Assembly: GCF_002865645.1 (NCBI RefSeq) | Contig: NW_020194558.1 | Location: 496,001 to 560,000 of the forward strand | Direction of reading: 5' to 3' | From: Hyaloscypha bicolor E | Lineage: Eukaryota; Ascomycota; Leotiomycetes; Helotiales; Hyaloscyphaceae | DNA: 64,000 nucleotides | Shown: positions 2,844-34,115 of the stretch, one piece after another | How the letters are laid out: every line of letters starts with the position of its first letter | Position numbering within the stretch: position 1 is the first letter of the stretch | Program-made: the position numbers and the translations under genes | Notes under the pieces: generated by a model | What the model saw: the letters and a program-made list of their open reading frames with translations, nothing else | Told to the model about the DNA's origin: nothing | Databases searched by the model: none

Positions 2844-4363
2844 ATGCTTCGCGGCTCTATCCTGCTCCTAGCTATTGGATTTGCGGTACGAGGCGCTGCT
2901 CAATGTCAGTCATATGGGTATGATTTTGTCGACGGCGGTAGCTACTTTCAAAACATATCATCTAGCGATGATTTCACTTTCATCAGCTACTTCGAAGGTT
3001 GTGAGGGAGAAGGGTCAATCACTCCTATTCTCGTAGATCCAAACGAGAATGAGTACTTTTGCTCTGATATTGCTACAAGCCCCGACGATGCTTTATTCAC
3101 CTCGACATGGTAAGGTTTGAATGGCCAAGTAAAGGATATCAGCTAATAATCGGAAGCCCCATAACAAAGTCCGAAATGTTTTCTGGCACCTGGTACCTTG
3201 TAATCGAGGGTCCTGACTTTGCATATACAAGAACTTTCTACCTCACGGTAGATGTTCCGACGACAATCATAGTAACTTGACCCCAATTTTGAAAGAAATT
3301 TGAACTAACAACCCCCTAGGCCACTCCGACAGGTACGACTTTCGAAGGTGGTTGAACGAAAGTTGAAACTGACCTTTCTTAACAGACGTTTTTGGCTATA
3401 CTATCACCCCCAATGCTACCAGTGAGTGGGCACGAAATGACCCGTGAACGTGCAATCCTAACGTCGCCCACTAGCTGTCACGTCAAATATAACTGAGACG
3501 GATTCAACAACCTTACCAGTCAGCACAACGACCGTACCGTGTCAAACATACATCAAGTTAACAACGACAACGCCAAAGAAGGTTACAGTATATTCCACCA
3601 AAACAATAACAAGGACTCGGACCGACGGTATTTGGACAACATCGACTTCCACCGTCATCTATAGCACTGCAAGCTGCACTCTGCCGCCTTACCCGCCCAA
3701 GCATGACCAAAAACTCATTGGAAGGTTTACTCCCAAGAACTCTCCAACTAGCCGCGGCAAGCAACAATATCACCCGCGTAGGACCCCTGATAGACATGCA
3801 GCCAGAAGGTTTCCTCTAGTAGAGCGAAGCCCAGGTAAGTCAGGTGATCTATATCAGCTCTTTAGTCGAGTGACTGACAAGCAACAAGACATGGCTACGA
3901 CGACGGTAACTGAGGCTACATACACCTTTAACAGTACGACGACTGTGATACTTCCAACTCCCACTGTCACTGAGATTGGTAAGAAGTCGCTTGCGCTTTC
4001 TCCCCTTTCAGATTTTGCTGACGAAATATCTAGATGTCGTTACCACCACAAACACGATGTAAAGCCTGGTGTGAAGAATTCTAAGCCGTAAGCTAACAGC
4101 TTTAGAACACCCGCACCATGTACTGTTTGTAAGGGTATTACGATTCAAAAGAGTACGATTACGGCACCAACTCCAACACGGACACGGACTACGAGGACTT
4201 GGGTGACCGTCTGGACTACCAAAACGATCAGCATTGTGTAGGTTGCTCTCTGCTATCTTCTCAATTTAAATGTACTCATAACAAGAATAGACGAACGGAG
4301 ACGAGTGTAGTGACGCCAACTGGAACGGCGGCAGCGTGTACGAAACGAGGAGGGCATATGTAA
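2844..4363 (+). CDS. Secreted Ser/Thr-rich protein of unknown function
   Basis: Nine exons join in frame to 369 residues: 2844-3109, 3157-3271, 3320-3332, 3386-3421, 3475-3834, 3889-3978, 4034-4058, 4106-4237, 4291-4363. The start is the ATG at 2844, which opens directly into a signal peptide (MLRGSILLLAIGFAVRGAAQ). The N-terminal ~125 residues form a Cys-containing domain (YFEGCEGEG, YFCSDIA, TCPITKSEMFSGTWYLVIEG). After it come Thr/Ser tracts likely to be O-glycosylated (TTTVPCQTYIKLTTTTPKKV, RTRTDGIWTTSTSTVIYSTA), a basic linker (PRRTPDRHAARRFP, a possible Kex2-type processing site) and more Thr-rich sequence. Such proteins are common in Pezizomycotina secretomes and may be wall-associated. 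I do not know a defined function. One 13-nt exon (3320-3332) is unusually small but is needed for phase. Confidence 0.72.
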
Positions 4364-5738
4364 AACATCCAGGTCGGGGGAACTGTCTACGATTTACAAA
4401 ATGATGATCAAATGAGTGAAGGCAAAGCGCAGAGGAGACGTAAAGAATTCCTCATGACTAATTAAAGATCCATCCCTTGCTCGCTGGTAACCATGTTTTC
4501 TCCCCCCGCTGTGCCTCGCCAGCTATGATCTAAATTCGAACCAGAATTAGGCAGAGATCAGAGGCAAAGCTCTCGGAGTTCTTTTTTCTTTTTCTTCTTC
4601 AAATTATGCCCTACATAGAGCAAGAGTGATTAATAGTTAGCATCTCGAAGTTCTCCACTGATCGAAGCGAACTGCCTTCTGGCCCCGGCATCGCGACTCG
4701 ATAATGCATGCTGAGGATCAGTAAATCTGCTCTCAGAAAGGACGGCGAGCGACTTAGCTAATATTCATTCTTATCTAATCTTACATATTCACTGCTCCAA
4801 TTCACACTGTTTTGTAATTTATGCAACGGGGCGAGACCCGAACTATATGCTTGGCTGGGAGCCTTAGCCAAGTCACATGATCACGGACTGGCCGTAGTCA
4901 TGTGACGTGTCCCTTTGATTAATGGAGCAACCACGCGTCACTCAGGGCGCTCGGATGTCCCAAGGAACACGGTTTTCATTTCTCTCCTTTTCTTTTTCTT
5001 CTCTCCTTAGAGAATTCTACTTAATTAATCAAACCACTAGTCTTCTTTGCACAAAGGCCTGGCCTGTGACAAAGAGAACTACAGGGACGCCAATAAAACA
5101 CCTCACCGCCTTGCTTTAAGAGTCCAAATTGCGGATAGTCAGATGCTCAATTCGTACTGTCCGGTGACGCGTCTGGTCTGTTATCAAGACATTTTTTGTT
5201 GTCAAATTTCCATACATTATCCCCGAGGCCAGAGTGAGAGCAGATCTTCCTCGGCATTTAGAGTTGAATATATGCACATTTTCGTTATGTCGCAGTCAAC
5301 TGGACGGTTCACTGAAATTCGCTCCGTTTAGCGGAAAGTCATATTGACAAACTCCGTGTCATCTAGTCACAGCTGTGCTGGCTTTATGGGGCGCATGTGG
5401 AAGATGTGGGGAGTATATACCTACTCCTGAAGTGCGAAAGTGCTGAGGCTGATGATGGTGGTTCTTCCTCTTTATGTCCCTTTTGGGGTTCGTACTGTAC
5501 GAAAGCGTGGGGAAAAGTGGGGGGTTTGGTTCCTGCCGTTTTAGGTTTTAGTGTGATGGACTGGCCTGGATCCAGGAACCTCACAGGGGCGATAACGCCT
5601 CCAAGCCCCTGCCGCGGTGCCGAGGATTGCTGTGCCGCCAGGCAGTCGTCCGAGTACGAGTACCAGTACTTAACTTCGACGACGGACAACTGCAAAACTT
5701 AGCCCTGATCTCGTTCTCACAACAATCTGTGGCACACC
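4364..5738. other. Intergenic, promoter of the aminopeptidase gene
   Basis: No gene supported. The sequence holds an imperfect palindrome around 4873-4909 (cacatgatcac / gtcatgtgacgtg) and pyrimidine-rich tracts near 4975-5010. Open frames here lack motifs and overlap each other on both strands. Confidence 0.45.
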
Positions 5739-7335
5739 ATGTTGCGCTCCGCCCTCGTGCTTCTTTTAAGCACTCAGTTTGCCCTCGGCGCTTCATTCCA
5801 GGACAAACAAGCGGTCCTCGTGCAATCTCCAGAGCTCCCAATTGCAAATGCACAGGCCGAGCACGTTGTGGACGAGGCAATCCTTGCAGCGCTCAAGACG
5901 CATTTTGACCCTGTTGCTGCACTACTTTCCCTCCAGCCCGAACTTGCAGCGGATCTCGCCCAAGAACGACTCTTGCATGTCGTTGGTGAGCAGAAGCCGG
6001 AATGGATGACGGAAGGAGATAAGCTGCGTCTGCGCAGACGCGGGAAGAAGTTCGTGGATATCACGGACCATGAAGAGTCCTATGCCCAGCAGGTGGGCAT
6101 CTTGTCCGGTAAAGCTAGTGAGAGCCTCCTCAGCTCAGTCAAGGTGCTTTTGTTCACGCTGTTGCAGATCTCCCCGACTTGAGGCACCAGGGCCTTATTA
6201 AGCCTCTCTTCTCGCATGTCTCGACGCAAAGAATGCACGATGTGCTCAAACACATGACGGGGTACTACAATCGGTACTATGGAGGTACTTATGGCGCACT
6301 GAGTGCCGAATGGCTGCACGACCACATTGCCAAGGTATGCTTCTCCTCTCCAACTTAGCCTAGCACTGAGAAAGAGAAGGCACTGACCGAGTCGTGTCAC
6401 AGATCATCAACGACTCTCCATTCGGCACCCACATCTCGCTCGAATACTTCACGCACCCTTTCCCCCAGTCCTCCATCATCGCGCGCTTCGAACCAAAGAT
6501 CCGCAACTTTTCTCATCCGCTGACGATTCTCGGCGCGCACCAGGACTCTGCAAACTACCTCTTCCCTCTCCTTCCCGCACCGGGCGCGGACGACGACTGC
6601 TCCGGCACTGTCAGCATCCTTGAAGCATTCCGAATCTTGGCCGAGAGTGGTTACACACCCAAAAATGGACCGGTTGAATTCCACTGGTATGCGGCTGAGG
6701 AAGGTGGATTGTTGGGTAGCCAGGCGATTGCGAGGTACAAGAAAGAATCGGGAGCTTCCATTGGGGCTATGATGGAGTTTGTAAGTCCTCTGAAACCAAC
6801 CTCATCTTCGCAATCAATGGCACTAATAGTCTAAAAAGGATATGACCGCCTTTATTGCCCGCAACGCAACTGAATCCATCGGGTTCATAAAGACCCAGGC
6901 GGACGAGGCGCTTACGAACTGGACATTGAAGCTGAGCAAGGAATACATCTCGATTCCCTCTGATATATACGAGCTAGCGGCGTAGGTTCACAACTTCCAA
7001 TCTCGTTTTGACATAGGCAGTTGACGAAGTAGTAACGCTGGCTCGGACTACATGTCCTATACCAAACTCAACTATCCTGCTGCGTTCGCATCAGAGGGCG
7101 ACCCACTGGCACAGGGTGGGTTCCCCGGTGATATGGATCCGTACGTGCATGGGGTGAACGACACGATGGATGTCGATGACGATACAGGCTTCTTCTCTCT
7201 CGACGTAAGTTAAGTCTCATTCCTATATTTGTTTGGAAAGTTGTTAAGATTGGCTGGCAGCACATGGCACGATTCTCGGAGCTCGCGATCGCCTTTGCTG
7301 TGGAGCAAGGCGGGTGGGACAATAGCTGGCGGTGA
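5739..7335 (+). CDS. Secreted M28 leucine aminopeptidase-like protein
   Basis: Zinc exopeptidase removing N-terminal residues outside the cell. Six exons give 434 aa: 5739-6108, 6168-6334, 6403-6780, 6839-6981, 7033-7204, 7261-7335. The ATG at 5739 begins a signal peptide (MLRSALVLLLSTQFALGASF); a propeptide-like segment follows to about residue 100. All M28 zinc-site motifs are visible in order: GAHQDS (His near 225), GADDDCSG (bridging Asp), the catalytic/ligand pair AAEEGG, MEFDMTAF across the 6781-6838 intron, and the last ligand in YVHGVNDTMD. YYGGTYG and FASEGDPL are also typical of the fungal LAP group. Length fits the family (about 380-430 aa with propeptide). It converges on the Zn2Cys6 gene, with 317 bp between stops. 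Nothing suggests inactivation. Confidence 0.92.
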
Positions 7336-7652
7336 ACTAGCCCACTCGAGGCTATTTGCTCTAAGAACTGCCTTCAAATTTATAGAATTTCTATTGGTTT
7401 TGCCCGAGAGCACATATCGCATCTCGGAAGTTTACCCGTACCTTACAATCTTCAGGTTGAGTCAGGATATATCCAAGATGGATCAAGGTTAATTCATCTT
7501 GCTTTCATTCGATCAAGTTTTCAATGTCAGCAGGTCTGGTCATGAAGTAAATGTTCGAAGCGTGGCTAGAACATTGATCGCTCCCAGCAATGTTCCAGGA
7601 ATTTTGGACATCCGATTATTATTGGTGTAGCACTTTCCACTTCCACAGAGAT

Positions 7653-9321
7653 TCAAACCACCAATACAGTTTGACCCTGCTCCTCAGCTCTCAGCATCCT
7701 CTCACCCAGCTCCGCAACCTTCACTGCATCCCACACAACCTCAATCCTCCCCTCCGCCAACCTCAAAATTCGAATAGCCTCTTCCCTTATCCCTCGATTC
7801 CGACAAATCATAACCGCAATAAACAACGCCGGGACCACCCCACAGTCAAACCCAAACGTCTTCTTGAACCGATGATCCAGCACCACGCGTCTCGTCAAGT
7901 CGAGAATCTCTCTTGCTTCGACTTCAAACAGCTCTTTCGGACGCTTGTCAATCTTCAGACATACTCTCTGAACGGAGATATCCGTGCCTAGAGCAAGGCA
8001 GCGCAGCGTCGCTGCGCCGATGAAATTTTTATCATCAGGACGCAGGGCGGCGTCGAAGAGCGGCTGGAAGCTTCGGTACCATTGTTGTAGCTGCGAGCCT
8101 AGGATCTCATAAACGCTTTCTGACACCGGGCACGCGAATTTGTCACCGTACATGAATGTATCTGTCAGATGGGAGAGGTACGGCATAGCTCTGAATTGGA
8201 AGTGCTCTAGGTAACCCTTTGCCTCGACGAGGTCGCGGAACGAAGGAGGCATGTATAAATGCTCATCGATGTACGTGATATCAAGGAAGCTGTAGCGCGG
8301 CCGGTAAGGATCGCCGAGTATACTCGACATAATGGTGTTATCGAGACGGACGAAGATCTCCAGTACTTCGTCCTCGAGACCCGGGATCGAGGACAGCCGC
8401 CGGATCTGTGAGTATTTCCGACTCGAGGTGTCGAGCCGCTTTTTCATCATCTTTAATGTGGCTTTGGCGTGCTCAACTGCTTGCTCGGGATTCCCGTGCA
8501 TCGACTCGAAGCTGAAGATTAGCAGGGAGGCGATCAGCATCGTGCGGATGGTTTCTAGGTCGTTGGAAGAGGCGACCATCTCGCGCATGCTGCGGAGCGC
8601 TTGTCCGTATTTGATCACCGCGAACTCTCGATGTTTTTCCCTTGCCCCAAAAGGGGATTTGGATTTCCCGAGCGCAGCGATGGCGACTGTGAGGTAGCGC
8701 AGGGTAGGCGAGTCGTTGCAGGCTTGTAGGACAACGTAGTTCCAGCACTTAGTTGGAACGTGCCCCGCCAGGTCGTGGACTACCTCGTCCCGGAAATAGA
8801 GCCAGTATTGATACTCTTCCTGGTCTCTAAAAAGGGCTGTCATTGGCAGTATGGAAATGTGTAGCGGGCAGCTGTGGCTTGGCAGGAGGCGTTTCTTGGC
8901 GGAAGAAGCAGGGGCGGGAGGCTTCAAATAGCCATTGCATGAAACGCCGAACTTTGTACATCTCTGGCAGCTTGGCTTCGTTTCGTCGCATTTGACTCTC
9001 CGTAGTCTGCGGTCCCGTCAGCGAAGATGCCCATTTTGCGATGAACTCGCATGACCGCGTCAAATGCTGGCGAGGGATAGGAGAGAGCACTTGGGGGGAA
9101 TTTGGAGAGACTCACTTGCAAGTCCTACATCCATTTCTGGTCTTGGGTTTCTTCGCCCGCACCCGATTGATCTTTTCTGGATAAACCTTCACCCGTTTGC
9201 TCGTCTGACCGGACGACTGGGATTCGCCTGACGAGGATGTTGCGCCCTCGTGTCCGGCTGCTCCCTCCGCCATCCGTGAACGTCGAGGTTCGGCATGTTT
9301 GTTGCTGAAGCTAACGTCCAT
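7653..9321 (-). CDS. Zn2Cys6 fungal transcription factor (copy 1)
   Basis: Nuclear zinc-cluster regulator, 519 aa from exons 9116-9321 and 7653-9006 (intron 9007-9115). The upstream in-frame codon at 9351 is TTG, so I choose the ATG at 9321. The zinc cluster is split by the intron directly after CRTCK: six cysteines at about 65, 68, 75, 82, 85 and 92 with spacing C-x2-C-x6-C-x6-C-x2-C-x6-C (CRTCKLRRVKCDETKPSC then QRC, VSC). A basic stretch before it (RVRAKKPKTRN) may serve as nuclear signal. The remainder matches the 'fungal specific TF domain 2' style seen in many Pezizomycotina regulators (YWLYFRDEVVHDLAGHVPTK, NYVVLQACNDSP). A paralogue with the same intron position lies at 28899-30898. 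Target genes cannot be read from sequence. Confidence 0.88.
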
Positions 9322-11548: not shown

Positions 11549-12842
11549 CATTTGTAGCTGTAGTTAGTGAATGTAATGGTCCTTTGCTTCTTAACTTGGG
11601 AGCTAGCTTTTGGCCGATTTGAGGAAACATTGAAGTTGTCGATGGCTGGGGCTTCGAGCAGGACTAATATAATGATGCAATGGTTTAAATGTTTTATCGA
11701 AGATATTTGATTATCTATCTTCTCGGATACTGAGCAAGAGATTCTCCAATATCCTCTGATTATCTTTCACTTCTGTTATATTTATCATTCTGACGACGTG
11801 ACTCTATTCCTCCACATTCAGTTGAACTCCCCTGCTTTCCTCCCATCTCCTCCATCACCAGGATTCCCTCATCCGTTATTGCTACCCCCTCGCTATCCCG
11901 AGTCCCCTCAACACCCCCATAGCCTCCCATCCCGCCGCCCTCCTCGTTGCCGACAAAGCCACCACTAAAGACTGGGTATAAACCCATACGGGGACATAAA
12001 CCCACCAGTGAACCCCTGATCAACAGTTATCTCCTTACAGAGCCTCAGTAACTCCAACAAACACATTCCAGCACCTCATCCGACGTCGGCATCGTATCAG
12101 TTGGAAGATTCGGCTTCATTGGTCCATGAAGCAAAAGGTACGTCTGTAACCCCTGCGCTCTCACCATCTTAGCAGCAGTGTAACTATGACCCTTCGGGTT
12201 CGTAAAATCCTCTCATGAAGCTACTAAAAGCGCTCATTCACTACACCTGCTACGTTCTCAACTCCTCCATCTCCCCGTTGAAAAGAGTGACTTCCTCGGT
12301 ACTCCCTATAAATGGACATTCCGGTGGATCGCGACTCTCGACATTCGGCATACTTCGATATTGGATATGTCATAGATATCTCCTAGCTGTTTGCGTGTCG
12401 ATGAATTAGCTAGGGACCACGTGTAGCTTGATACGGTAATAATCACCCTCCCGCCCGCCTCCTAAAAATGCTATGCCGCACTCCACGAAAAAATTAACCA
12501 CTAATATTTAAGGTTCATAGCCTATAATTTAGCGACCAGAGCCCTATAATTTAGTAATTAGAAGCCTATAATTATAACGCTTACGCCCGACTCTTAACTC
12601 TCGACTCTCGACCCTCGACTCTCGAAGTTCGCTTTCCACTTCTCACTTTTCTACTTCTCCATTTTTATCTTACGCCGCTGCCCTTCCTCCCTCCCCTACC
12701 GCTATACTTATATATATATATTAAAGAGAGAGAGTAAAGATTTTAAATAATAGTTTGAGACTTGAGAGGGGCGTGGTAGTGGGCATGGTCAGGTAGGAAA
12801 GTGCGGAAGATTTTTGGTAGGGTGAAACATGCAAGCGGGATA
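11549..12842. other. Degraded intergenic tract entering transposon region
   Basis: Contains one coding-like fragment (listed separately at 12045-12212), a tandem of short CTCTCGAC-type units near 12590-12625, and falling GC content towards the MITE at 12843. No intact gene. Confidence 0.45.
12045..12212 (-). pseudogene. Unidentified coding relic, 55 codons
   Basis: Minus-strand frame reading EDFTNPKGHSYTAAKMVRAQ, then GLQTYLLLHGPMKPNLP and TDTMPTSDEVLECVCWSY before a TGA. The residue usage looks protein-like, but the upstream frame is broken by several stops (TGA, TAG) within 60 bp. I read it as the surviving tail of a decayed gene next to the transposon cluster. I do not recognise the family. 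An open frame continues below (11760-12023, -) but is Gly-rich and unconvincing. Confidence 0.3.
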
Positions 12843-13700
12843 CAGCGATATTAGTAACAATCGTCTAAATCGCATTTTGAGCGCGAGCGCAAAAAGGGTC
12901 AGGAACACCAAACCCATAATATTAATTATATCGACTGTATCACCATTTATTAATAGAACTCCATAATTTTAATTGAAATAGATGGGGGCATTAGTGCGAT
13001 TAATTTAAGCTACTATAGTCCTCTTCTGGACTTATAATTTCTAAGTTATTTGAGATCGGGCGAAAATGCGATTTTCTAGCCTTGCGCGCCAAGCTTTGCC
13101 AAGCCCAGCCCCTCGATTTTCGATTTTCGTATCCCTCCGACTCCTTTTCTAAATAACTTTCAAACCATACTTCTAGACTTAGTACTCTCGGGCTTAAATA
13201 GATTATATAAGTATCCCCTTACTCTCTTTAGGAGTTTATATTATTATAATACGATTTGGGACTATAGCCGGCAAAATAATACTATTTTATACCAAAATTA
13301 AATGTAAAAACTACCCTTTATTAAATTATATAATTAATCTGCTTCTAGCCAAAGAGCCTTCTTACTAAAAGAAAGCCCCAGATATTCCCTTACTCTCTCT
13401 AAGAGCTTAGACTATTTTAATAAGGTTTGGGACCGTGGCCGGCGAATTAATACTATTTTATACCAAAATTAAAAGTAAAATCGCCATTTACTAAATTGAA
13501 TAATTAATTTGCTTCTAGCCAAATAGACCTTTATCTAAAGAATGCCCCAAATGCCCCCATTAATTTGAGCCTATCACCGTTTTAATTAAGGCTATTATTA
13601 TTGAGAAGTCGTAGAAAATAATTTCGTGGTTTTGGTGTTCTCGACCCTTTTTGCGCTCTCGCTTAAAATGCGATTTAGACAATTGTTACTAATATCGCTG
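12843..13700. mobile_element. MITE-like element with ~75-bp inverted repeats and TA flanks
   Basis: The left end (from 12843, CAGCGATATTAGTAACAATC) and the reverse complement of the right end (ending 13700) match over about 75 bp, differing mostly by C/T and G/A changes. TA dinucleotides sit immediately outside at 12841-12842 and 13701-13702, as expected for a Tc1/mariner-type target duplication. The inside has no coding capacity and is AT-rich, so the element is non-autonomous. It contains an internal direct duplication (listed separately). Confidence 0.75.
13205..13550. repeat. Two ~173-bp direct repeats inside the MITE
   Basis: Unit 1 begins near 13205 and unit 2 near 13377. Both contain the block CCTTACTCTCT, GGTTTGGGAC or its variant, CCGGC, ATACTATTTTATACCAAAA, and GCTTCTAGCCAAA in the same order. 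They differ by scattered transitions. Confidence 0.6.
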
Positions 13701-13737
13701 TACACGTTTTGCGTTTCGCGCTTGGACTACGCAGTAG

Positions 13738-13865
13738 ACTACGGAAAGCCGTAAGGATCAGAAGACCAAGCGATTTTCGAATCTGGTTTTCGACCTTCGA
13801 TGTCTGATTTGTGGCACGTGCGCACCCCACCAAAAATCGCCCGCAACCAAAATACCGCATTCTGC
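13738..13865 (+). repeat. Left terminal inverted repeat of the 9.5-kb element
   Basis: Pairs with 23083-23210. Contains CCCCACCAAAAATCGCCCGC, the part best conserved in the third copy near 61130. Confidence 0.8.
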
Positions 13866-14137
13866 AGGTACAACCACACCTAACTTAAGTCCCTTTGTTA
13901 CTGTCCATTATAAGACTCGTATATATAATTAAATCATGTTTCTAAGTATAGATAATTTATGATATAATTAACTGTAATACTTCTGAATCGTTCTTGTAAG
14001 GTTATACCAGCCCCGTACCACTACCTGTAATACCCCTCTGCCCCTTCTCTCTACTCTTACTAATATGTGACTAGCTTTGTATATATAAGATATATATAGA
14101 AGGACGGAATCATGTCGGATTAGAGAATTAGTTACAG

Positions 14138-14392
14138 AGGATATACTTGGAATAGCTGGTTAGTAGGAGGCGTATCCGAAACCGGCAAAAATAAGTCAAG
14201 ATATACGAAGTCACTGGTTCGTAGGAGGCCTGCCCGAAACCGGTAGTACCGAATAAGGATATACTTGGAATAGCCGGCCGGCAGGAGGTGCGTCCGAAAC
14301 CGGTAGTAACAAATAAGGATATATATAGAGTCGCTAGTTAGTAAGAGGCGTATCCGAAACCGGCAGTAATAAGTAAAGATATATTACAGGAT
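14138..14392. repeat. Four subterminal tandem repeats of ~62 bp
   Basis: Each unit has GGATATA, a variable GAATAGC or AGTCGCT segment, GGAGG/GAGGCGT, TCCGAAACCGG and AATAAG in fixed order. Copies start near 14138, 14199, 14257 and 14318. Their place just inside the terminal repeat resembles transposase-binding arrays, which is inference. Confidence 0.65.
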
Positions 14393-14571
14393 AACTCGGC
14401 ATGGATCTATATCCAAAATAGAAACAGATAGTCTCACCGATTCTTCAATATAGAGGGGTTTTCCTATTATATTCTTATTCCCTAGATTACTATCTTTGCT
14501 CCCTTTTGCTCCCATTCTCAATCCAATCTCTTTAAAACTGCCTTATCCAAGACTTTATATATTATAATACT

Positions 14572-16593
14572 ATGGCCTACTATAAAAAGTGCCAAAAGCA
14601 GAAGGGCATTAGCCCTTTTTATAGCCGCTATAGTACTATCTTTCCCTCCTCAAGCCCGACCGAATCTACCTCAGAGGAGGAGCATCTATAGAAGGCCCGT
14701 AAGCCAAAGCCGAAGCCTCTCGCCTCTCGCCCTTCCAAGAATAATAAGAGGGACGATAATAATAATAGTACTAAAGAGGTAGGTACTAGAAATTAGTATA
14801 CCTATTAGGCCAAGTTCTAAAAGGATAAGGAAGAGAGAGAGAAGGAGGGGAAGGAGAAGCGAGTAAGGAAGGAGAGGGAAAGTCTCTAAAGGACTATTAC
14901 TAGGGATACTTTTCGTAGTATATAGGAAGACGACCTCGCCTCTACTAGGAAGAAGAAGAAGAAATCAAGGCTCCAGGGAAGTACTTTGACTAAGGCTTAT
15001 AGTTAGCGAGAGTTAAAAGCAAAGGAAGATAATAAAAGAAAGCATAATAAAGAAGGGCTAACCAGTGGATATAGCTATAATCCTGCCAATAAGCCTTTAC
15101 TAATAGGCTTATTAATAACTATCTATTACTATATCGGCTACCCTGGGAAGCCGTTTAAGCAGACTGCCCCTTTGAAACTCCCATTTTTTCTCGACCCTTA
15201 CGAGATATTCGTAAGGCTCAGTGGCTGGGTACTCAATCGCCTCCTAGAGTCTGATATCTGGAAAGGCGTTAGAAGGGCTAAATACTATAAACTTGACCTT
15301 GAGGATCAAAGCCTGACTATGGGCTACCTTACTAATAGGGTTGCCTGCTCCAAAGTTCCGGACTTCCCGGTTCTATTTAGAGAAAATCGCACTTTTAAAT
15401 AGTTCCTTGAATATATAAAGAAGACATGTCCTAGTATAAACTATTAAGAGCCCAAACTCTACTTCCTTATTCCCGTTAAAAAAAAGTGGCCTTTACAGGA
15501 TTATTAACCGTATAAAGGGCTAATAGTTAATTTAATAATAACCCCTGATACCGATAACTTGTCAAAAACCCTTAATACCAATAACTCTAATAGTAATATA
15601 ATTGGAAACAATTATATATCTAAAAAGGAGCGGCATTAGTATTAAAGTGCCAGTGGAAAACTTGGTATTATCTATTAAGAGAACCACAAGAGATCTAAGT
15701 CTCCACAAACTCTAGCCGGTAAGCCTACTCTAGCCACTAAAACTCCAGCCCGTAAGCCCACCCCAGCCGCTAAAACTCTAGCCCGTAAGCCCACTCCAGC
15801 CACTGAAACTCTAGCCCGTAAGCCCACTCCAGCCGCTAAGCCTACTCCAGCCAGTAATTCAGAGGAGCCCTTTAACGAGGTATTCAATAAATAATATAAG
15901 TAGCTAAGGGAGTCTATAATAAAAGGTTATATTAATAGGTATTGGTATATATTAAAAAAGGGGCTAGCGGACCTTAAGAGGGAAAAGGAGTAATTTGAGG
16001 TACGAAAACAGAGCTTCGAAAAGGAAAGGGATACGGTAATCAAAGAAAGCAATACCTATATAGACAGGCTTAATAAGAGAGTACGGCTTTTAAAAGCTAC
16101 AAAAGAGGAATTTGAAATTAAAAAACAAAGTCTCGCCGAAATCCATATAAAGAATCTTAAGAAGCTAAATACAAAGATGCTCTCTTTCCTTTCAGGAGAT
16201 TCTCAAGGCAAGGCAGTTAAGGGAAGACAATTATCCATGAGTTCAAAGTATCTTAATAGTCTTACAAAAAAGGATTTGGAGATTACGGACTTGCAAGAGG
16301 AGGTGAGGCTTATAACAGAGGCTCTTTAATAAAGTCTCGACCATATGGTACGAAACGAGGAGGGGCTTGGCAAGCTAGTTATTTAGCAGGATAAGAGCGA
16401 AAGCTCGACGTCTACTATACAGGGAGCCTTTTAGGTAGCTATATAAGAGACCCAGGGCGAAAGCTCGGGGTCGGTAGTACCAGTAGTCCAGGAAGCTCAG
16501 GGCAAAGGCTCTGGATCTCTTGAGGCAGCTGGGCCTAATATTAATAAGAGCTCTCTATAGTCTGCTAAGGGCAAGGGGAAAGCACGCAAGTAA
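14572..16593 (+). pseudogene. RIP-degraded ORF of 673 codons in the transposon (Lys/Glu-rich, coiled coil)
   Basis: Starting at ATG 14572 the frame continues to the tandem TAA codons at 16591 with no net frameshift (2019 nt = 673 codons), yet about two dozen internal TAG/TAA stops interrupt it. There is no TGA among those I read. TAG/TAA is what CAG, CAA and TGG become by C-to-T change on either strand. The protein was basic at its N-terminus (KARKPKPKPLASRPSK) and had a central globular stretch (LPFFLDPYEIFVRLSGWVLN, KVPDFPVLFRENRTFK), a Lys-Pro-Thr-Ala repeat tract, then a heptad-rich segment (FEVRKQSFEKERDTVIKESN). I do not recognise the family. Not a retrotransposon gag as far as I can see. 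Confidence 0.6.
15710..15853 (+). repeat. 33-bp in-frame minisatellite within the relic ORF
   Basis: About four copies of an 11-codon unit read as KTLARKPTPAA/T, ending with KPTPAAKPTPAS. The period is a multiple of three, so it was tolerated in the original protein. Confidence 0.6.
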
Positions 16594-17269
16594 TAAGAGA
16601 CTGTCTGGATTTCCTAGTATTATTAAATTAGTCGTATCGAGAATCTTATTACTCTAGTAGCTAGTCAAATTGGGAATATAAAAAGTAATATTTACTTGTT
16701 TCTAATTAACTAATTTCTAGTTAATTTCAAGAACTTGGGAATTACATGGTTATATGCCTTTTCCCTCCGGCTATATAATACCTTAAAAAACAGATATTAT
16801 ATGTCTACTATAGTAAAGGGCTTTATTATTAACCTAATTAGGTAAGGCATAATACTACCTTATTATATTACTAGCTATTTATATAGCTATTCTATAAGCG
16901 ATTTGAGTAAGCTTTAATATCCTCGGATCTCTATATATAGCCTAGTCTATAAACTAAAATAGCTCTATATCTAGTAATACTATAATTTAATTTTTAATAT
17001 GAAAATAATTACCTTATTTCGGTATACTTAAATATATTAGGTTTGGTTTTTTTAATAGTATTATTATTAAATTATTATTTTCTAGGAATACTAAGTAATA
17101 CTTTCTCCTAAGAGATATATATCCTTAATAAATAGCAAAAGTGAATATGGAATTTAATAACGTAATTACCCCGTACTAGTACCTTTCTTTTTTTTTATAA
17201 AAGTATAACTTTATTCTATCTTTATTCCAAAACCTCTATCCTTCTTCTATATTTTTTCGACTTTACTAT

Positions 17270-17500
17270 TAATACCAAGAGCTAGTATCTTATTACCCTC
17301 TACTAATATTTCCATTAATACTAAGAGCTAGTATCTGACTACCTATAACCTCTCCCTCTTTCTTTAAACCCCTCCTCCTTTGACCCCTCCTCCTCCGAAC
17401 CCCTCCTTCTTTAAACCCCTCCTCCTTTAACCCCTCTTCCTCTAAACCCCTCCTCCTTTGAACCCTCTACTAATAATACCAAGAGCTGGCACCTGACTAC
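17270..17500 (+). repeat. Pyrimidine-rich short tandem repeats
   Basis: Three dispersed copies of AATAC(C/T)AAGAGCT(A/G)G at about 17276, 17320 and 17473 surround six units of the type AACCCCTCCTCCTTTG (17364-17462). In one frame this would encode Pro/Leu-rich sequence, but stops interrupt it. Confidence 0.5.
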
Positions 17501-18095
17501 CACTTCCGGGTCACTTTTGTCCGGAACTCCCATATTATAAGTCTTTAACCCACTTGCTCCTTAGAAAGCTAAATTTTAGATCCCTCCTCCCCTTTTCCGA
17601 TATCTTTTACGCCTTCGGGCCCTTTGGGAGTACCCTCTCTTAAACTTCCAAAAAGAGGCTAACTTCTGTTTAGATCCCTCCGAACTTTAATACCTCCTCC
17701 CCTTTTCTAATACCTTCTCCCCTCCTTTAACGCTTACAAAAGCCTTCGGGCCGCTACTAAGTACCTCTATTCTTTATCTTAGAATATATACTAACTTATT
17801 CTTATAAGAAATAGCCTTCCTCCCTCCGATCTCGACTTCTTTAATATATACTCCTTGCCTTCGGGCTATTTAGACGTCTCCCTATTCTCTTTTACGAAAT
17901 ATATACTAACTTATTTTTTAGTTCTCCTTGCCTCACCTCCCTCGCCTTACCTCCCCTTTAATATTACCGTATATATGCCTAGTTAGTACTAGTTCTTATA
18001 ACCCATAATTAGGCTTTCTATTTATTAAATACCCGGATATTTTATTTTACTTTTGCTTTATATATTTTGTTTTATATACTTTACTTTCCTTTTAT

Positions 18096-18830
18096 TATAG
18101 GTTAGGACTCAAATGGTATTTACCTTAAGTACTTATACTCTCGGGTATATAAGACTCCTATAGATCTTTCGGGATTATAAACCAGCCTACTTTAGTTCGG
18201 GGGAGCTTCCTCGAAAGTATTCCAGGAGTTATGGTATTTATTATAATCCCTCCCAAAGATTAATATAGTATGGGTAATTCTGGTCCATTCTCTCTCTATA
18301 GAGCAAACCGCTGCCCTAAGTCCATATAAAAGTCCTAATTATCCCTCGAGTTAAAATATGGGTACTTCTTATTCCTATTAAATTAGGTATAAAGGATAGC
18401 AGGCGCCTTTGGGCTAGACTATAGTACTAGTTAAGTACTAAGACTCCCTATACCTTGCGAGATATTACTTATAGCTCCAGATATATTATATTTAATAGGG
18501 CTTCCATATCCAATTACCTTATATTATAGTAAAATATATGGTATTATAGTTAGGGGAGTTCTGCTTTATAATCTTATCTACTACTTATAGATTTTCTAGC
18601 TAATAAGTCTTGGCTAATAGCTAAGAAACTTATTAGCTACTCTGTCTAAAGCCTCTGGGAGCGGGAAGTTGCCTTAATAAAGACTTAGTATCAAAAATAG
18701 GTTTAACTAATTAATCCAAACGAGGAGTTTATAGCAGGAGTCTCTATATATGGGTAATTCCATATAATAAACTCAAGTCCCTGTCCCTGGTTATATGAGT
18801 GAGCTATATAAGAAACTCTTTCTGGCCTAT
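18096..18830 (+). pseudogene. Unidentified degraded coding region in the transposon
   Basis: A long plus frame with protein-like composition, broken by TAG/TAA stops: GELPRKYSRSYGIYYNPSQR, then HIKVLIIPRVKIWVLLIPIK, then SLWEREVALIKT. The stops fall where Trp or Gln would fit, as in the neighbouring relics. I cannot name the family. The 5' and 3' limits are approximate. Confidence 0.4.
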
Positions 18831-19423
18831 TAGAGCAGTCCCTATCCCTGGTTATATGAGTTATAACGTATAATAAACTCAAACTTTTCTTGGGTTATCT
18901 TTGGAAGAATTAGCAAGCTTTTCTAGACAGACTCATTAAGGCCTTGGTTTTCAAAGATATTAGTCCAGCCTTCTTACTCCCCCCTTAAGTAATAGTTCGG
19001 CTCTCAGGAATTATATATAAACGTTGGAATAAATGAGGAGATATATTATATATGTTTTCTAGATAGATTGGGATAGAACCTATAGAATTCCTGCAATATT
19101 TATATTAAATCTATAGTACTGGCTAGCAAAGACTTTAATAACCTTAATAAGACTTGAATTGCGAGCCTAGCCCTCAGATTTCCCGCTTAACTTCAAGGTT
19201 AAATAGTCCATAACAGGTTACCTATTATAGAACGTATTATACTCTTTTCCCAAAAAGTGCCGGGTACTAGTAATAGTCCGGATACCCCAAAGCCCTTAAG
19301 ACTCTTTATAAGTTTCCGGCTTTGGGGCATTTTTACGGCCAGCCGATTCTATAGAATTATGTAACTACGCAATCCCTTATATTAATTTAAAGGAATTATA
19401 TCTTTGTATATAGCTATAATATT

Positions 19424-21174
19424 ACCTTTAAAGAGCTTGATATAAATAAACTTTTATAGCCCAAATATTAGTTATTAAATAAGTTATCCAAGATCCCCTC
19501 GTTCTCTAAACCCCCTGAATTATCCTCGTATTACCCCTCATTATCTATAGAAACCTTACTATCAAGATTATCCTCTTTAATATTCCCTGGTCCTCGATTT
19601 ACTATAATTATATTCTCTAGTCTCTATTCCGCCTCTCGAACTGCCTCTAACTACTTATTCCCCCTATAAGGAGGCTCGATATTAAATAGGAGCTTTCTAA
19701 CTCTCTCCTTATAGAGTTTAAGGATATAATAAAGGAACCAATATACCCTAATATAGTCTTAATCTAGCCCTGCTTTAAGCTCATCCATAATATATATAAT
19801 ACCGGTATCTTCAAGGAGAGTTATATAAAGCTCTTCAATTTCGGGGGTTTAATATACCATATAATTATATCCTATAACCTCCTCTTTAAGCTCAGAAAGT
19901 AATTACTCAGTCGCTCCTATTAGGGAAGTACCATAATAACGAACTCCCTAGTAATAATCATATAGCTCTTCTGGAACTCCAGGCCGGAGGTAATTAGCCC
20001 TTGCCTACTAAGAGCGAATCGGACTAATATTATAAAGGAGGATAAAGTTATTAATCTATTAGTAGAGGATATTCATATAAATAAATCAAATAATAATCAG
20101 GTTATAATAAGACTCCCTATTAAAGATACTTGTATTATAAAAAGATTCAAAGAACCATTTCCAGGTCTCTATAAGCCCACTAGCTAAGGTATTCCACTAT
20201 ATCTCGATATGCTAATTCTTTATTAAGGGCCCGTAAGTAAAGGCCTTTTTCCATAGTAAATCGTAACCCTTTACTAACCGCCGGAGCTCGACTTACGTAA
20301 TTACCATAAGTAGTATCTCCTAGCCTTTATTAGCTTATAACTTTTTTGGAAAGTAACCCTATTCCCTAATATAGAAAAGGTAGAACTTCAGAATAGTAAT
20401 CTATATACAATTTAATATACTAACAAAAATACTAATTATTATTCGAGAATATATATTAATAATACTATAGATCTGGAAGCCGTAATAGGATAACTTGTTA
20501 TACCTATCTATAGACTAATATCGACCTGGCCCCTTAATAGTAAACCTCCTATACTTCCGATCCTTATACTTATCTTACGCCTTTACCCCTACCTCGTCTA
20601 ATATCCTAAGTATCTGCTATATCTCCTTACGGAATATAAATTTACTAGTATTCTTTCGGATCCAGTAATATATCCTCCCATAGCCATACCGGATTAATTA
20701 ACCGCTCTTTAGTTCCTTGAGGATGAATTCTTTGGCTTCCTTAAGAGCATTAATATATTCGGTATTAAATCAATTTCGTCTTAGCTAAAGCTTATAATAG
20801 TACCAAATTATTTTCAGGGTATATATATTAAGCCTAGAATAATCGAGTTTGTAATTAAAGATCCGAAGCATATATTTAGGCAAATAGTTCCGATACCAGA
20901 GGTAATATACTATCTTAACTAGCTTCTTATTACGGAGATATGCCTTATACTTTACTTGCTATTAATCCGGAAAGAGTTTAGTATTCTATTATTATAATTA
21001 AGTAATATAGCTAGTCTTACTAGTATTAAACCCTTCTAGTTATAAGGCGTATCTAATATCCTAAAGAGTCTTCTCTTAAATATAATAGAGCTCTTTAATT
21101 TGAGCTCGATATCATTCCTATAATTAAGGATTAATTCTATTAGTTCCTATAGTATAGTATAGTTTGCAAGTCAT
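19424..21174 (-). pseudogene. Integrase/DDE-core transposase, RIP-inactivated
   Basis: The minus strand reads as a degraded copy of the fungal integrase-core proteins. An N-terminal helical part (YRAQIKELYY, EGFNTSKTSY, LFPD) resembles the DNA-binding region found before this core. Then come NTEYINALKEAKEFILKEL, IRKNTSKFIFRKEI, ILDEVGVKA, and the core strands RRFTIKGPGRY*SIDRYNKL and SYYGFQIYSIINIYSRIIIS, where the first acidic residue is the D of SIDRYNKL. Further on are ANKG*EILLM and VELRRLVKGYDLLWKKAFTY with HIEI*WNTLASGLIETWKWF; the second acidic position now reads N, as expected from G-to-A change, and the HIE glutamate is kept. Stops replace probable Trp/Gln. It is dead in this copy. 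A shift of frame somewhere in the segment is likely, because the distance from the first ATG to the last stop is not a multiple of three. Confidence 0.65.
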
Positions 21175-22031
21175 AGTAATAGTAATTAGGAATAAAGAGT
21201 AAAGAGGGGAGGGAATATACGGTCTTTAAATATTAGTCTATACTAGTATAAAAACCCCACTTTTGTATTTATATAAAATATAATATTATAACTACTAAAA
21301 ATAGTCTTGTTTTTATATTATATTATCTAGATATATTATATCTAGATTATAAAATAATACTAATATTTCGTTTCTTATATATAAAGAAAGCTTATTTTTA
21401 GTATTATATAACTATGTAATTCCCTGGATCCGAGAAACTAGTATAAAATTTAGAGAGGGCAACTTGCTATTTATATAATTCCAAAATTATTAGGCTTCCT
21501 AATCTAATCCTATACTTTTCAGGTTTAACTAGGAACTCTCTATCTATACCCTAGTATTATACTAGTAGCGGACCCGTAAATATAGTTTACCTAACCTACC
21601 TATTTGGCCCGGGAATTATGTCTTATAATTCCCCTTTATAAAAGTAGTATTAATATAGCGGATACTATTGCCTATAAAATTAATCCTATCTTCTAATTAG
21701 CTCATTAATCCCATTATTACCTCTATTTGCGAATTTATTATTACTCTATAAGGGAGAGAGCTTAGGAAGGTTAATCCGATCTCCTAGTTTATTCGTAAAT
21801 CCGTTCTTTTATATTTTTTAGGCCTTTATAGTATAAAGGTAACTCCGAATTCGTAATTACTTTTCGGGAAGAGGGTATTATAAAAAGGCCTTCTTTTCCT
21901 TCTAACTAACCCTCCTTCTCTTTCAACTATAATACTATACCCAACCTCCTCTTTACCTCTCTTCTTCTTCCTTCAAGTATTATTCAAGCCTTCCTTCCTA
22001 CCATAAGGTAAATATAATCCTTTATTATACC

Positions 22032-22920
22032 ACCAAAAAAGTCCTCAAAGGAAAAGAAGAGACGCAATATATATAATATTAGTAATATTAATAACCTGTA
22101 CCCGTCTAGTAAAGATAAGTAATATAATATAGCTCAAGTACAAAGGCTTAAAGACTCGAGGTATTATAGAGAAGTAGTAAGTTATACTCTCCCTATATAA
22201 AAAGCTAGAATATAGTACTAATCGAATATTAGAATAATGATTTATTAAATCTACTAAACCCCCCTCCTTTCTCAAATACCTTATAGCCTCCTCTTACTAC
22301 TACTAACGAATAGTACTATCTCGAGCTTTTCGATATCCCCGATAAGATAATACAAGTTATAAAGGATATCTATAAAATACCAGAGGTTCGAGATATAAAG
22401 TTTCGTCCTGGAAAGAAGCTAGCCAACTTGAATAATCCGAAGATTGTAGCAAACCTAGAGGCAGTATATAATCAAACTCGAGGCTATTTAGTACCTATAC
22501 CTTGTATTAATTATACGAAAAAGAACCCTAAAGGCCCATAGCAGGAGTATATATAAGTTTAGGGCAAATTCGACCGAGCCTATTATAATTACAGATATAA
22601 TAATAGCGGCAGAGTATATACCTTATACTGCCTTAATATAGTACTAAAAGATCTAGCTCCTCCCAAGTTAGCCTCTATAAAACCTCAATTTTTAAAACCA
22701 CGAATACCCTCGAAATGAAGTAATAAAGTAAAGAGACTAATAAAGGGGGAGGGAAAGAGAGAGGAAGAGGGTAAGGATAAGAATAAAGAGGATAATGGAG
22801 ATGGAGATATTTCGAGTATTATAGGGGATAATAGCGAGGATAATAATAGTAAGGAAGGTATGCCTCGCAATCTATAGGATCTACTATACGGACTATGCAA
22901 GTTAAAGGGGGATTAATAGT
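22032..22920 (+). pseudogene. Degraded Cys-motif protein relic (DUF3716-like)
   Basis: Two frames probably joined by a lost intron. The first reads PPKKSSKEKKRRNIYNISNI after an ATA that could be a mutated ATG. The second runs LELFDIPDKIIQVIKDIYKI, VRDIKFRPGKKLANLNN, then GYLVPIPCINYTKKNPKGP*, and RAYYNYRYNNSGRVYTLYCL. In the fungal DUF3716 family the equivalent stretch is rich in Cys. Here most such positions are Tyr, the outcome of TGC/TGT to TAC/TAT change. The tail is Glu/Lys/Asn rich. Resemblance is from memory and needs a profile search. Confidence 0.4.
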
Positions 22921-23082
22921 AATTAAGAAGGGGGGGCGGAGGCAGGGGCAGGGGCGGAGGGAGTACTAGAGATATTATAGCAAAGATAAATATAAATATT
23001 AGTACGTTTAGTAACTGTAAATAGCTTTATTTTGGCTATCTCTATATAAGTTATATATACGAGTGCAATAGTGGTTATATCC

Positions 23083-23210
23083 GCAGAATGCGGTATTTTG
23101 GTTGCGGGCGATTTTTGGTGGGGTACGTACGTGCCACAAATCAGATATCGAAGGTCGAAAACCAGATTCGAAAATCGCTTGGTCTTCTGATCCTTACGGC
23201 TTTCCGTAGT
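23083..23210 (-). repeat. Right terminal inverted repeat of the 9.5-kb element
   Basis: Reverse complement of the left repeat with three transitions. Just outside (23217-23234) the terminal motif TACGGAAAGTCGTAAG recurs, suggesting a duplicated or nested end. Confidence 0.8.
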
Positions 23211-23609
23211 AGACGTTCTTACGACTTTCCGTAGCATTTTGGCTTGAGCTTCGGGGAGCAAATTGGGCCACAGTAATTCAATGAAGAATTAAACACCAAG
23301 AGTCATCTGGAGTAACATTCATCCGATGAGATGGTAATACGGCGCGATAGCTAAGGATGGGATCAGTCTCGGACTCTCGGCTAGTGCGAGAACACGCGCC
23401 GTTTATCTCTTTTCGGAAAGGACCTTCCTGTATGGACGTACTCCGTGACCAAAGGATGTCGCCGAGAATAAGCCCCTATTATAGCCGCATACTCGCATTC
23501 CTAGCGTAATTGTGTTGGATTAAGATCTGGTGAAAATGGAGCCTACCCCAATCCTTTCCACCGACCTCTTGTTTGCCTCCTCGCCCTGCAATACTGTGCT
23601 AGTACTATC

Positions 23610-31780: not shown

Positions 31781-32791
31781 TAATAATATAACATAGTCTA
31801 CAATAGAGTTCGAAATCGACTTTAGTTTGGAACACTCAATTATTTTATTTTTGACCTATACTTTATATATACTAATCCTCAATAACCACGGAGTAGTTAG
31901 TCGCCTCCCTCTATACGTAATTTGCCTCGGAACTTTTCACAGCCAGTTATCGGTATTACTTCTACAATATTACGTAAGAGTATTAATATTGTATCTAAAG
32001 ATTGCTTCCAGCTTTATAAAACGTTCTAGTAATTTAACTTGCTTATTTATTAATAGTTATTATTTTAAATACTAAGTTTTATTTCTTTAATTATATTATT
32101 ATATTATTAATTCTAAGTTTTTTTTAAAAAATATTATTATAAATTAATTAAATTAAAATAGAAATTTTATTAATAAGTTAAATTATATTTAAATTATTAC
32201 TAATAGCTTTATATAAGCTTTAAAGCTAATAATAATTTTATTTTAAAGTCGTCTCGAGTTATTAAATTACTTTAGTATTTATAAACTTAATTAATTATAT
32301 TAACGATTTTAAACTTACTTATTATAATATTAAATTATATTATAGTTTTAATATTTCTTATATAACTCGCTATTTATAATATATTATAAGCTAATTATTT
32401 AAAGTAATTTAATTATATAATAATATAAAATAATTAAATAACTAATTTATATTATATTATTAATATTTTTTTATTAATAAATTATAGTTAATTATAGTTT
32501 ATAAAAATAATATAAACTTATATAATTAATATTTTTTAATTTAAAAATATTATAATAAAATAAGTATTATAATAATTATAAAGAATATATATTAAGCTAA
32601 AAATACTAGCTAATATATTAAAGAAATATTTAAATTATTTAAGTTATTTAAATATATATTTAATAAATATTAAATAAAATATAAGTAAGATATTTTTAAT
32701 TAAGTAAAAATAAATAAGACCTATTACTTTATTTTATGTTATTTATTTAATATACTAGTACTAATTATATATTATATAATTAGTATTATAA

Positions 32792-32855
<64 letters not shown>

Positions 32856-33770
32856 CTAAATATAAAGAAAAATTCTAATATATTTTATTAATACTTTATT
32901 ATAATTATTATATAAAATAGTAATATTATATTTATATTATATATCTTAAAGATATACTTTTTAAATAAATATAAAAATAAGAAAGAAACTTGCTTTATAT
33001 ATATATTAAAAAGCTAAAATATTATTAAAAAATAGCTTTTTTAAAAGCAAGAAAAAGAAATTAAACGAAATTTAAGTTTTTAATTATATAATATAATATT
33101 AAAATTACTTTTATAAGTACTACTTGTAATTTTATTAATTTATTAAATAAAAAATAATTAAGAATATATAAGTTTTTTAAAGTATATAAACTATAATAGA
33201 AATATAAGCTTTTATAATATGAAATTAGGAAATAAAGATTAATTAATTTCTTAAAAGAAAAAAATATTTATAAAGTAAAATATTTATAAATTATAAGTAC
33301 TCGAATATTTAAAGGTTATATAATTGTATTATATAATTATAAAGTTAAAATTCTTATTATAAATCCTTTAAAGTATATAAGCTATTATAATTACTTTATA
33401 GCTATTTTATTTAACTTTTATTAAAGTCTTTTCTAAATTCTTTCTTTTATATATTAAGATTATTATAAATCTTATTATTCTTATAGTTATATAAATTATA
33501 ATTAAATAATATTTTTAATAATTATAAAAGTTATAACTTTAAGACTTTAAGAAATTAAAAATAGTTTCAAATTTCTAAATAAGAAAAGTAATATTAAAAA
33601 AAGACCTTTAAAATTTTATATATTAAAAAGATTCTATTAAAAGAATTCTAATTAGTCTAAATTAAAGAGAATAATTAAAAAGTATATTAATTATTTATAA
33701 GCTTATGAATATCTTATATTATAAGTAATTTATTATATAAAAACTAAAAAGCAATGAAAAGTTAAGTGCA
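31780..33770. other. Extreme AT-rich, RIP-like block
   Basis: About 2 kb composed almost only of A and T with scattered GC, no open frame of note except a meaningless 82-codon one at 31827. This is what repeated C-to-T mutation leaves of an old repeat. No inverted ends were recognised. A trinucleotide run lies inside. Confidence 0.6.
32797..32852. repeat. (AAT)n microsatellite
   Basis: About 18 uninterrupted AAT units inside the AT-rich block. Confidence 0.85.
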
Positions 33771-34115
33771 ATGTGTGCAATATTATTAAGTCATGTTTTT
33801 TTCGGGGTTTTGGCAGGAGTATTGCTATCGGCCTCGGTATTTGTCAAGCACGAACATGACTCCTTTGGGCGGACAATCCTGGTTTGGGAATGCTACGCTA
33901 GCTAAACAGAGGGGTATACAGGGGTTAGCAGAGGCATCCTCATTTTGTATCTATTAGTAACATTTAATCGTATTATTATGTACCAGCCGTAGCCGCCTGT
34001 ACGCCGCTGTATATTCAAATCATTAAGTGATCGATCCAGGCCGTCACCACTCGCACACCCCTCATTCTCCTTTCCCGCCGAAGCTGTTGTAAAGCGCATC
34101 AGCTCCTCACAACGA

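What the first reader, a model, noticed from the sequence alone, without database searches (positions are those of the whole stretch)
13738..23210. A ~9.5-kb inverted-repeat transposon with near-perfect ends and a wrecked interior
The two 128-bp ends differ at three positions, all transitions, while the coding interior carries dozens of TAG/TAA stops. If RIP had hit the whole element equally, the ends should be decayed too. This fits a dead copy whose ends stayed functional and which was mobilised in trans by a live relative, or an element that is naturally very AT-rich inside. Gene content (integrase-core transposase, Cys-motif protein, coiled-coil protein, one unknown) does not match any fungal transposon group I know by name, so it is a candidate for an undescribed large DNA transposon group.
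Basis: partly seen in the sequence, partly recalled or inferred. Interest (0 to 1): 0.75.

Follow-up and report, generated by a model that had tools for sequence, protein, structure and literature searches.

The report
RIP-killed IS3EU transposon with spared ends
This is a large fungal "jumping gene" of a recently named but known group (IS3EU); the host's mutation defence has wrecked its genes while leaving its two tips almost untouched.

Summary
Window 13740-23208 is a 9,469-bp transposon with 138-bp inverted ends and an exact 6-bp target duplication, GTAGAC. An end-motif search found 12 end pairs 9.1-23 kb apart and 15 pairs 0.2-0.76 kb apart elsewhere and here in the genome. The interior is dead: 37 stops in the transposase frame, 7 in a second gene. 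Two open proteins in a public collection differ from these frames only by changes that C>T/G>A can make (163 of 163 and 59 of 59), so the damage is RIP, not natural AT-richness. The group is not undescribed: termini TACGG..CCGTA, 6-bp (sometimes 7-bp) duplications and an integrase-core transposase fit IS3EU; size and multi-gene layout recall Styx of Zymoseptoria. Movement of dead copies is not needed: eight full copies differ in RIP pattern (no interior pair above 91.4% identity) but have few transversions, as if a near-identical intact element spread and each copy was then mutated in place. RIP falls off toward the ends: 0 of 42 CpA/TpG site-copies mutated in the terminal 60 bp against 81% inside. 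I read this as a repeat-edge effect of RIP; that is the most interesting residue and is not proven.

The parts
13734..13739 (.). left target-site duplication GTAGAC
   Evidence: identical to 23209-23214
13740..13877 (+). left terminal inverted repeat, 138 bp, begins TACGGAAAGCCG
16872..19422 (.). module shared at 75-87% DNA identity with a second IS3EU-like family (L033, L034); coding content unresolved
19471..21150 (-). broken transposase gene, 560 codons, 37 in-frame stops; rva_4 integrase core (PF24764); the open relative P0001 also has a Clr5 domain
22245..22910 (+). broken Cys-motif gene, 222 codons, 7 in-frame stops; the open relative P0003 is DUF3716 (PF12511)
23071..23208 (-). right terminal inverted repeat, 138 bp, ends CGGCTTTCCGTA
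23209..23214 (.). right target-site duplication GTAGAC

Best explanation
It is a copy of a large IS3EU-type DNA transposon. When alive, the element coded for a DDE (integrase-core) transposase that recognised the inverted ends, cut the element out and pasted it into a staggered 6-bp (sometimes 7-bp) target, leaving the flanking duplication. A near-identical intact element spread through this genome. Afterwards repeat-induced point mutation (RIP) turned C into T, mainly at CpA/TpG, in each long copy separately and killed the genes. RIP intensity falls toward the edges of a copy, so the terminal 60 bp or so usually stay unmutated. Short internally deleted derivatives with the same ends, which look little RIPped, were presumably moved in trans while transposase was available. 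Shown here: borders, duplications, transposase type, RIP as the cause of decay, different RIP patterns per copy, the fall toward the ends. Inferred: enzyme activity, binding at the ends, trans-mobilisation of short copies, and that the fall toward the ends is a property of RIP itself.
For: Termini TACGG..CCGTA and exact 6/7-bp duplications in 11 of 14 long and 3 of 5 short copies equal the published IS3EU hallmarks (TAYGG..CCRTA, TIRs over 30 bp, 6-bp TSD: passages of PMC12730594; TA..TA termini and usually 6 bp: passages of PMC10045372). Transposase frame matches PF24764 at 39.3 bits, cut-off 26. Open relative P0001 aligns gap-free over 560 residues: 397 identical, 163 differences all C>T/G>A-reachable, 37 of 37 stops reachable; P0003 likewise 59 of 59 and 7 of 7; controls: 15.8% of random residue/codon pairs are reachable, and the more distant P0002 leaves 107 differences unreachable. 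Between 8 full copies 84-196 transitions but 0.2-6.4 transversions per kb; RIP states correlate moderately in all pairs (phi 0.16-0.43), none near identity (best interior identity 0.914). CpA/TpG sites kept in the window copy are mutated in the other 7 copies at 0 of 42 site-copies in the terminal 60 bp, 16 of 105 at 61-100, 26 of 91 at 101-138, 2,117 of 2,620 at 301-9000.
Against: No IS3EU reference transposase was at hand, so membership rests on termini, duplication length and domain, not on a tree. 2 of 14 long copies lack a duplication. Only 3 CpA/TpG sites per end lie in the terminal 60 bp. On the left side the CpA/TpG rate jumps from 0.25 at 101-138 to 0.80 at 139-300, close to the inner border of the inverted repeat, which a selection or TIR-specific cause could also give. 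One of the three RIPped ends (C70:2415k) has about 110 bp of non-repeated DNA outside it, against a strict edge rule. The copy search started from an intact end and so favoured intact ends.
Confidence: 0.82

Rival explanations
1. One reading: copies were RIPped first, and only those whose ends stayed functional were then moved in trans by a live relative, so the ends look clean through selection for mobility.
For: A degenerate Styx copy was mobilised in Zymoseptoria (passage of PMC10853768). The left-side jump in CpA/TpG mutation near the inner border of the inverted repeat could reflect a functional end. Cut-and-paste moves would leave no sister copy, so lack of sisters does not exclude it.
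Against: No two of 8 full copies share a RIP pattern closely. Counted over all C/G columns the fraction mutated rises gradually: 0-0.04 in the first 60 bp, 0.07-0.20 at 61-140, then noisily to the interior value of 0.37 by roughly 200-300 bp. Copies with RIPped ends also exist in place (3 of 24 ends).
Confidence: 0.12
2. Ends are kept clean by gene conversion from, or pairing with, the many short, little-RIPped copies that carry the same terminal 100 bp or so.
For: Short copies share the first 99-102 bp at 96-99% identity and have RIP ratios near 1.
Against: The 7-bp-deletion variant of the end keeps its own sequence at both ends of two copies, so ends are not simply homogenised; low RIP continues inward beyond the 102 bp that short copies share.
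Confidence: 0.06
3. It belongs to a group other than IS3EU: GingerRoot-like, Polinton-like, or an undescribed superfamily.
For: GingerRoot shares 6-bp duplications and mostly TA..TA termini, and IS3EU and GingerRoot are written as one group in a passage of PMC10045372.
Against: TACGG..CCGTA is the motif published for fungal IS3EU; no polymerase, ATPase or protease domain appeared in the 9 frames scanned (not all frames of the element were scanned).
Confidence: 0.07
4. The interior is naturally AT-rich and was never coding with a standard frame.
For: GC of the window copy is 0.356, below most of the window.
Against: The window copy is the least AT-rich of 8 full copies (0.18-0.36), and two open relatives differ only by C>T/G>A-reachable changes.
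Confidence: 0.01

Closest known systems
IS3EU superfamily, fungal members (PMC12730594 and PMC10045372, passages read)
   Same: Termini TAYGG..CCRTA, inverted repeats longer than 30 bp, 6-bp duplications, integrase-like DDE transposase
   Different: 7-bp duplications in 3 of the 19 copies examined here; no TET/JBP or alpha-kinase domain matched in the 9 frames scanned; carries a DUF3716 gene
Styx of Zymoseptoria (PMC10853768, passages read)
   Same: Large multi-gene IS3EU-related element with an integrase-type transposase, a gene with a putative zinc-type DNA-binding motif, highly conserved ends, 6-bp duplications, unpaired single ends, RIP-type decay
   Different: Styx is 7,927 bp with 36-bp ends and still active in Z. 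tritici; here 9,469 bp with 138-bp ends and no open copy seen in this genome. Styx genes carry GATA, CCHC and DUF3577 motifs; here DUF3716. Sequences were not compared
GingerRoot (passage of PMC10045372)
   Same: 6-bp duplications, mostly TA..TA termini, related transposase
   Different: Described there from a clubmoss; no sequence compared here

Membership tests
IS3EU | TA..TA termini (fungal: TAYGG..CCRTA) | tested here: met
   TACGG..CCGTA in the window copy and nearly all ends shown; exceptions: two RIPped ends TATAG and one truncated end
IS3EU | 6-bp target duplication (usual) | tested here: met
   exact 6 bp in 9 of 14 long and 2 of 5 short copies, exact 7 bp in 2 and 1, one mismatch at 6 in 1 and 1, none in 2 and 1
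IS3EU | inverted repeats longer than 30 bp (published for the rust members) | tested here: met
   138 bp
IS3EU | DDE transposase of the IS3/IS481/integrase type | tested here: met
   PF24764 39.3 bits over cut-off 26 in the broken frame; open relatives P0001 and P0002 have rva_4, Clr5 and a sub-threshold rve match
IS3EU | transposase clusters with IS3EU in a tree | not testable with these tools
   no reference IS3EU transposase was available
Styx (the named element) | sequence similarity of ends and genes to Styx; DUF3577, GATA and CCHC genes | not tested
   Styx sequence not held; here DUF3716 was found instead
Polinton/Maverick | DNA polymerase B, packaging ATPase, protease (recalled) | tested here: inconclusive
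   no such domain in the 9 read-through frames scanned, but 21199-22199 and some other frames were not scanned and RIP weakens detection

The most novel reading that the evidence does not exclude
RIP is weak within about 60-200 bp of the edge of a repeat, so it destroys a transposon's genes while leaving the transposase-recognised ends intact. A RIP-active fungus would thereby turn autonomous elements into stocks of dead but mobilisable ones, ready for any incoming live relative. In keeping with this, two of the three RIPped ends seen abut another end of the family, so that repeat homology continues past the border.
Probability: 0.4. Interest if true: 0.6.

Novelty: new member of a known kind. 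Interest (0 to 1): 0.38.

Why it matters
It adds a large, multi-gene, multi-copy IS3EU family with short derivatives, in the style of Styx, in a RIP-active genome, and corrects the idea of an undescribed group. Its copies, nearly identical before RIP, are a clean natural data set on where RIP does and does not act. If the edge effect is general, it explains how RIP can kill transposons yet leave mobilisable ends behind.

Tried and rejected
Natural AT-richness: rejected. Polinton/Maverick: no hallmark domain in the 9 frames scanned, not all frames. Movement after RIP as the main cause of clean ends: no sister pairs among 8 copies, not excluded. Preferential insertion beside older ends: 2 of 44 outward flanks (up to 150 bp) hold an end motif with at most 1 mismatch against about 0.5% for random window pieces; too few to claim. 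Structure of the open transposase: mean pLDDT 38, unusable, so no fold search was made. Solved structures: one weak match, TnsB, E 0.12. The lysine-rich gene: none at E 0.001 among the 7,992 candidates scored. Coding content of the shared module: most indels between families are not multiples of three and transversions show no clear codon period, so it may be partly non-coding. A nested insert in the C14 copy seems to have a GC-richer end, but no second copy was compared. Host name: G handles bear none; not pursued further. Literature on a RIP edge effect: listings and passages of PMC12543289 and PMC10787394 gave no statement of it; subscription journals are mostly not held, so this is no proof of absence. 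Literature on rva_4/Clr5/DUF3716 transposases: listing, nothing relevant.
Full report
What is there. Its CpA/TpG-type RIP suggests a filamentous ascomycete (inference). Positions 13740-23208 are one insertion of 9,469 bp with 138-bp inverted ends and an exact GTAGAC duplication. Over the first 126 bp the ends differ at 3 positions and over 138 bp at 6, all transitions.

Other copies. A 28-base end motif was found 87 times with up to 3 mismatches (control 1). Neighbouring opposite ends form 27 pairs: 12 long (9,073-22,989 bp; the three longest carry further insertions) and 15 short (214-759 bp, some of them from related families that differ after the first 22 bases); 33 ends are unpaired. A search with 2 kb of interior DNA scored 40 of 131 candidates: 15 match nearly the whole query, 25 only about its first 1.4 kb. 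Flanks: of 14 long copies, 9 have exact 6-bp and 2 exact 7-bp duplications, 1 has one mismatch and 2 none; of 5 short copies, 2 have 6 bp, 1 has 7 bp, 1 has one mismatch and 1 none; 0 of 342 non-cognate flank pairs match.

Genes. On the minus strand, 19471-21150 reads as 560 codons with 37 stops; this frame matches Pfam rva_4 (PF24764, 39.3 bits, cut-off 26). A protein search, which scored the 7,991 candidates sharing most words, gave two relatives: P0001 (71% identity) and P0002 (56%), both with rva_4 and Clr5 domains. P0001 aligns without gaps over its whole length: 397 residues identical, and all 163 differences, including all 37 stops, can be made by C>T or G>A alone. Random residue/codon pairs are reachable in 15.8% of trials, and P0002 leaves 107 differences unreachable. 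So P0001 is in effect an un-RIPped version of this gene, from a public collection. The likely catalytic residues, inferred from the alignments, are D215, D274 and E316 of P0001; the window copy has lost the second (D to N). A lysine/glutamate-rich frame at 14572-16596 found no relative. Region 16872-19422 is shared with a second family: 82% with L033, and 75% then 87% with L034. The second family's ends begin TACTGAGGCC and its transposase is only 30-32% identical to P0001 over about 150-160 residues. Over 17401-19422 the module differs from L034 by 27 transversions in 1,977 aligned bases, which suggests exchange between families.

RIP. The 8 full copies compared have (CpA+TpG)/(ApC+GpT) of 0.22-0.59 and GC of 0.18-0.36; the window copy is the least affected. 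Short copies L025-L027 stand at 0.91-1.04 (these figures include about 150 bp of flank on each side). Between full copies there are 84-196 transitions per kb but 0.2-6.4 transversions per kb: they were nearly identical before RIP. No pair of interiors exceeds 91.4% identity, and RIP states correlate moderately in all pairs (phi 0.16-0.43), which hot and cold sites alone might give. This fits insertion first and RIP afterwards, copy by copy.

The ends. At CpA/TpG sites kept in the window copy, the other 7 copies are mutated at 0 of 42 site-copies in the terminal 60 bp (only 3 sites per end), 16 of 105 at 61-100 bp, 26 of 91 at 101-138 bp, and 2,117 of 2,620 at positions 301-9000. On the left the rate jumps from 0.25 at 101-138 to 0.80 at 139-300; on the right it goes from 0.34 to 0.49. 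With all C/G columns the fraction mutated is 0-0.04 in the first 60 bp, 0.07-0.20 at 61-140 bp, and then climbs noisily to the interior value (0.37) by roughly 200-300 bp. Even the two most degraded copies have 0 of 55 and 2 of 55 changes in their terminal 60 bp, both ends together. So the fall looks more like a gradient than a cliff at the inner border of the repeat, but the left-hand CpA/TpG jump is a caution. In a set of 24 ends (the window's two and 22 others; ends of L009, L012 and L014 are shown, those of L010 and L011 entered only the counts), three carry 4, 5 and 8 RIP-type changes among 26 C/G sites of the terminal 60 bp. Two of these abut another end of the family head to head; the third has about 110 bp of non-repeated DNA outside it and does not fit a strict edge rule. 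Five ends belong to a variant with shared differences and a 7-bp deletion. One search ranked places by likeness to an intact end, so intact ends are over-represented; searches corrected this in part.

Mechanism. I conclude: an IS3EU-type cut-and-paste transposon (activity inferred from its kind) spread as an intact element, left short internally deleted relatives, and was then killed by RIP, which acts weakly near repeat borders. Movement of a degenerate copy in trans is published for Styx (PMC10853768, passage) but is not needed here and left no sister copies among the 8 compared.

Known or new. Published fungal IS3EU have TAYGG..CCRTA termini, inverted repeats over 30 bp and 6-bp duplications (PMC12730594, passages). 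IS3EU and GingerRoot share TA..TA ends and 6-bp duplications (PMC10045372, passages). Styx is a 7,927-bp IS3EU-related element with four genes (PMC10853768, passages). IS3EU has also been counted in Colletotrichum lupini (PMC11645255, passages). This element is a new family of that kind; placement in a tree could not be tested.

Noticed in passing
window 12841-13702: An 862-bp inverted-repeat element (TACAGCG..CGCTGTA), 37 bp left of the transposon; 6 near-full copies at 86-100% including this one; no target duplication seen by eye.
   Followed up: partly
window 23215-23233; L047: A same-orientation fragment of an IS3EU end (1 mismatch in 10 bases) sits 25 bp outside the right end; the C52 copy has an exact one 32 bp outside. 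Perhaps insertion into older ends.
   Followed up: partly
window 16872-19422; L033, L034: A 2-2.5-kb module is far more alike between two IS3EU-like families than their transposases, as if exchanged recently.
   Followed up: partly
L040, L041, L042, L043, L044: A variant of the end with a 7-bp deletion and shared substitutions on 5 ends of three copies with the same interior.
   Followed up: partly
L029 (G000:C33:2569237-2569821): An unrelated-looking rva_4 copy in DNA with a genome-like CpA/TpG ratio (1.29), with 5 stops in the domain.
   Followed up: no
window 32001-34000: A stretch of only 9-19% GC, far below the rest of the window; probably another heavily RIPped repeat.
   Followed up: no
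window 14138-14383 and 17354-17478: Internal tandem repeats of about 60 bp and about 16 bp inside the element.
   Followed up: no
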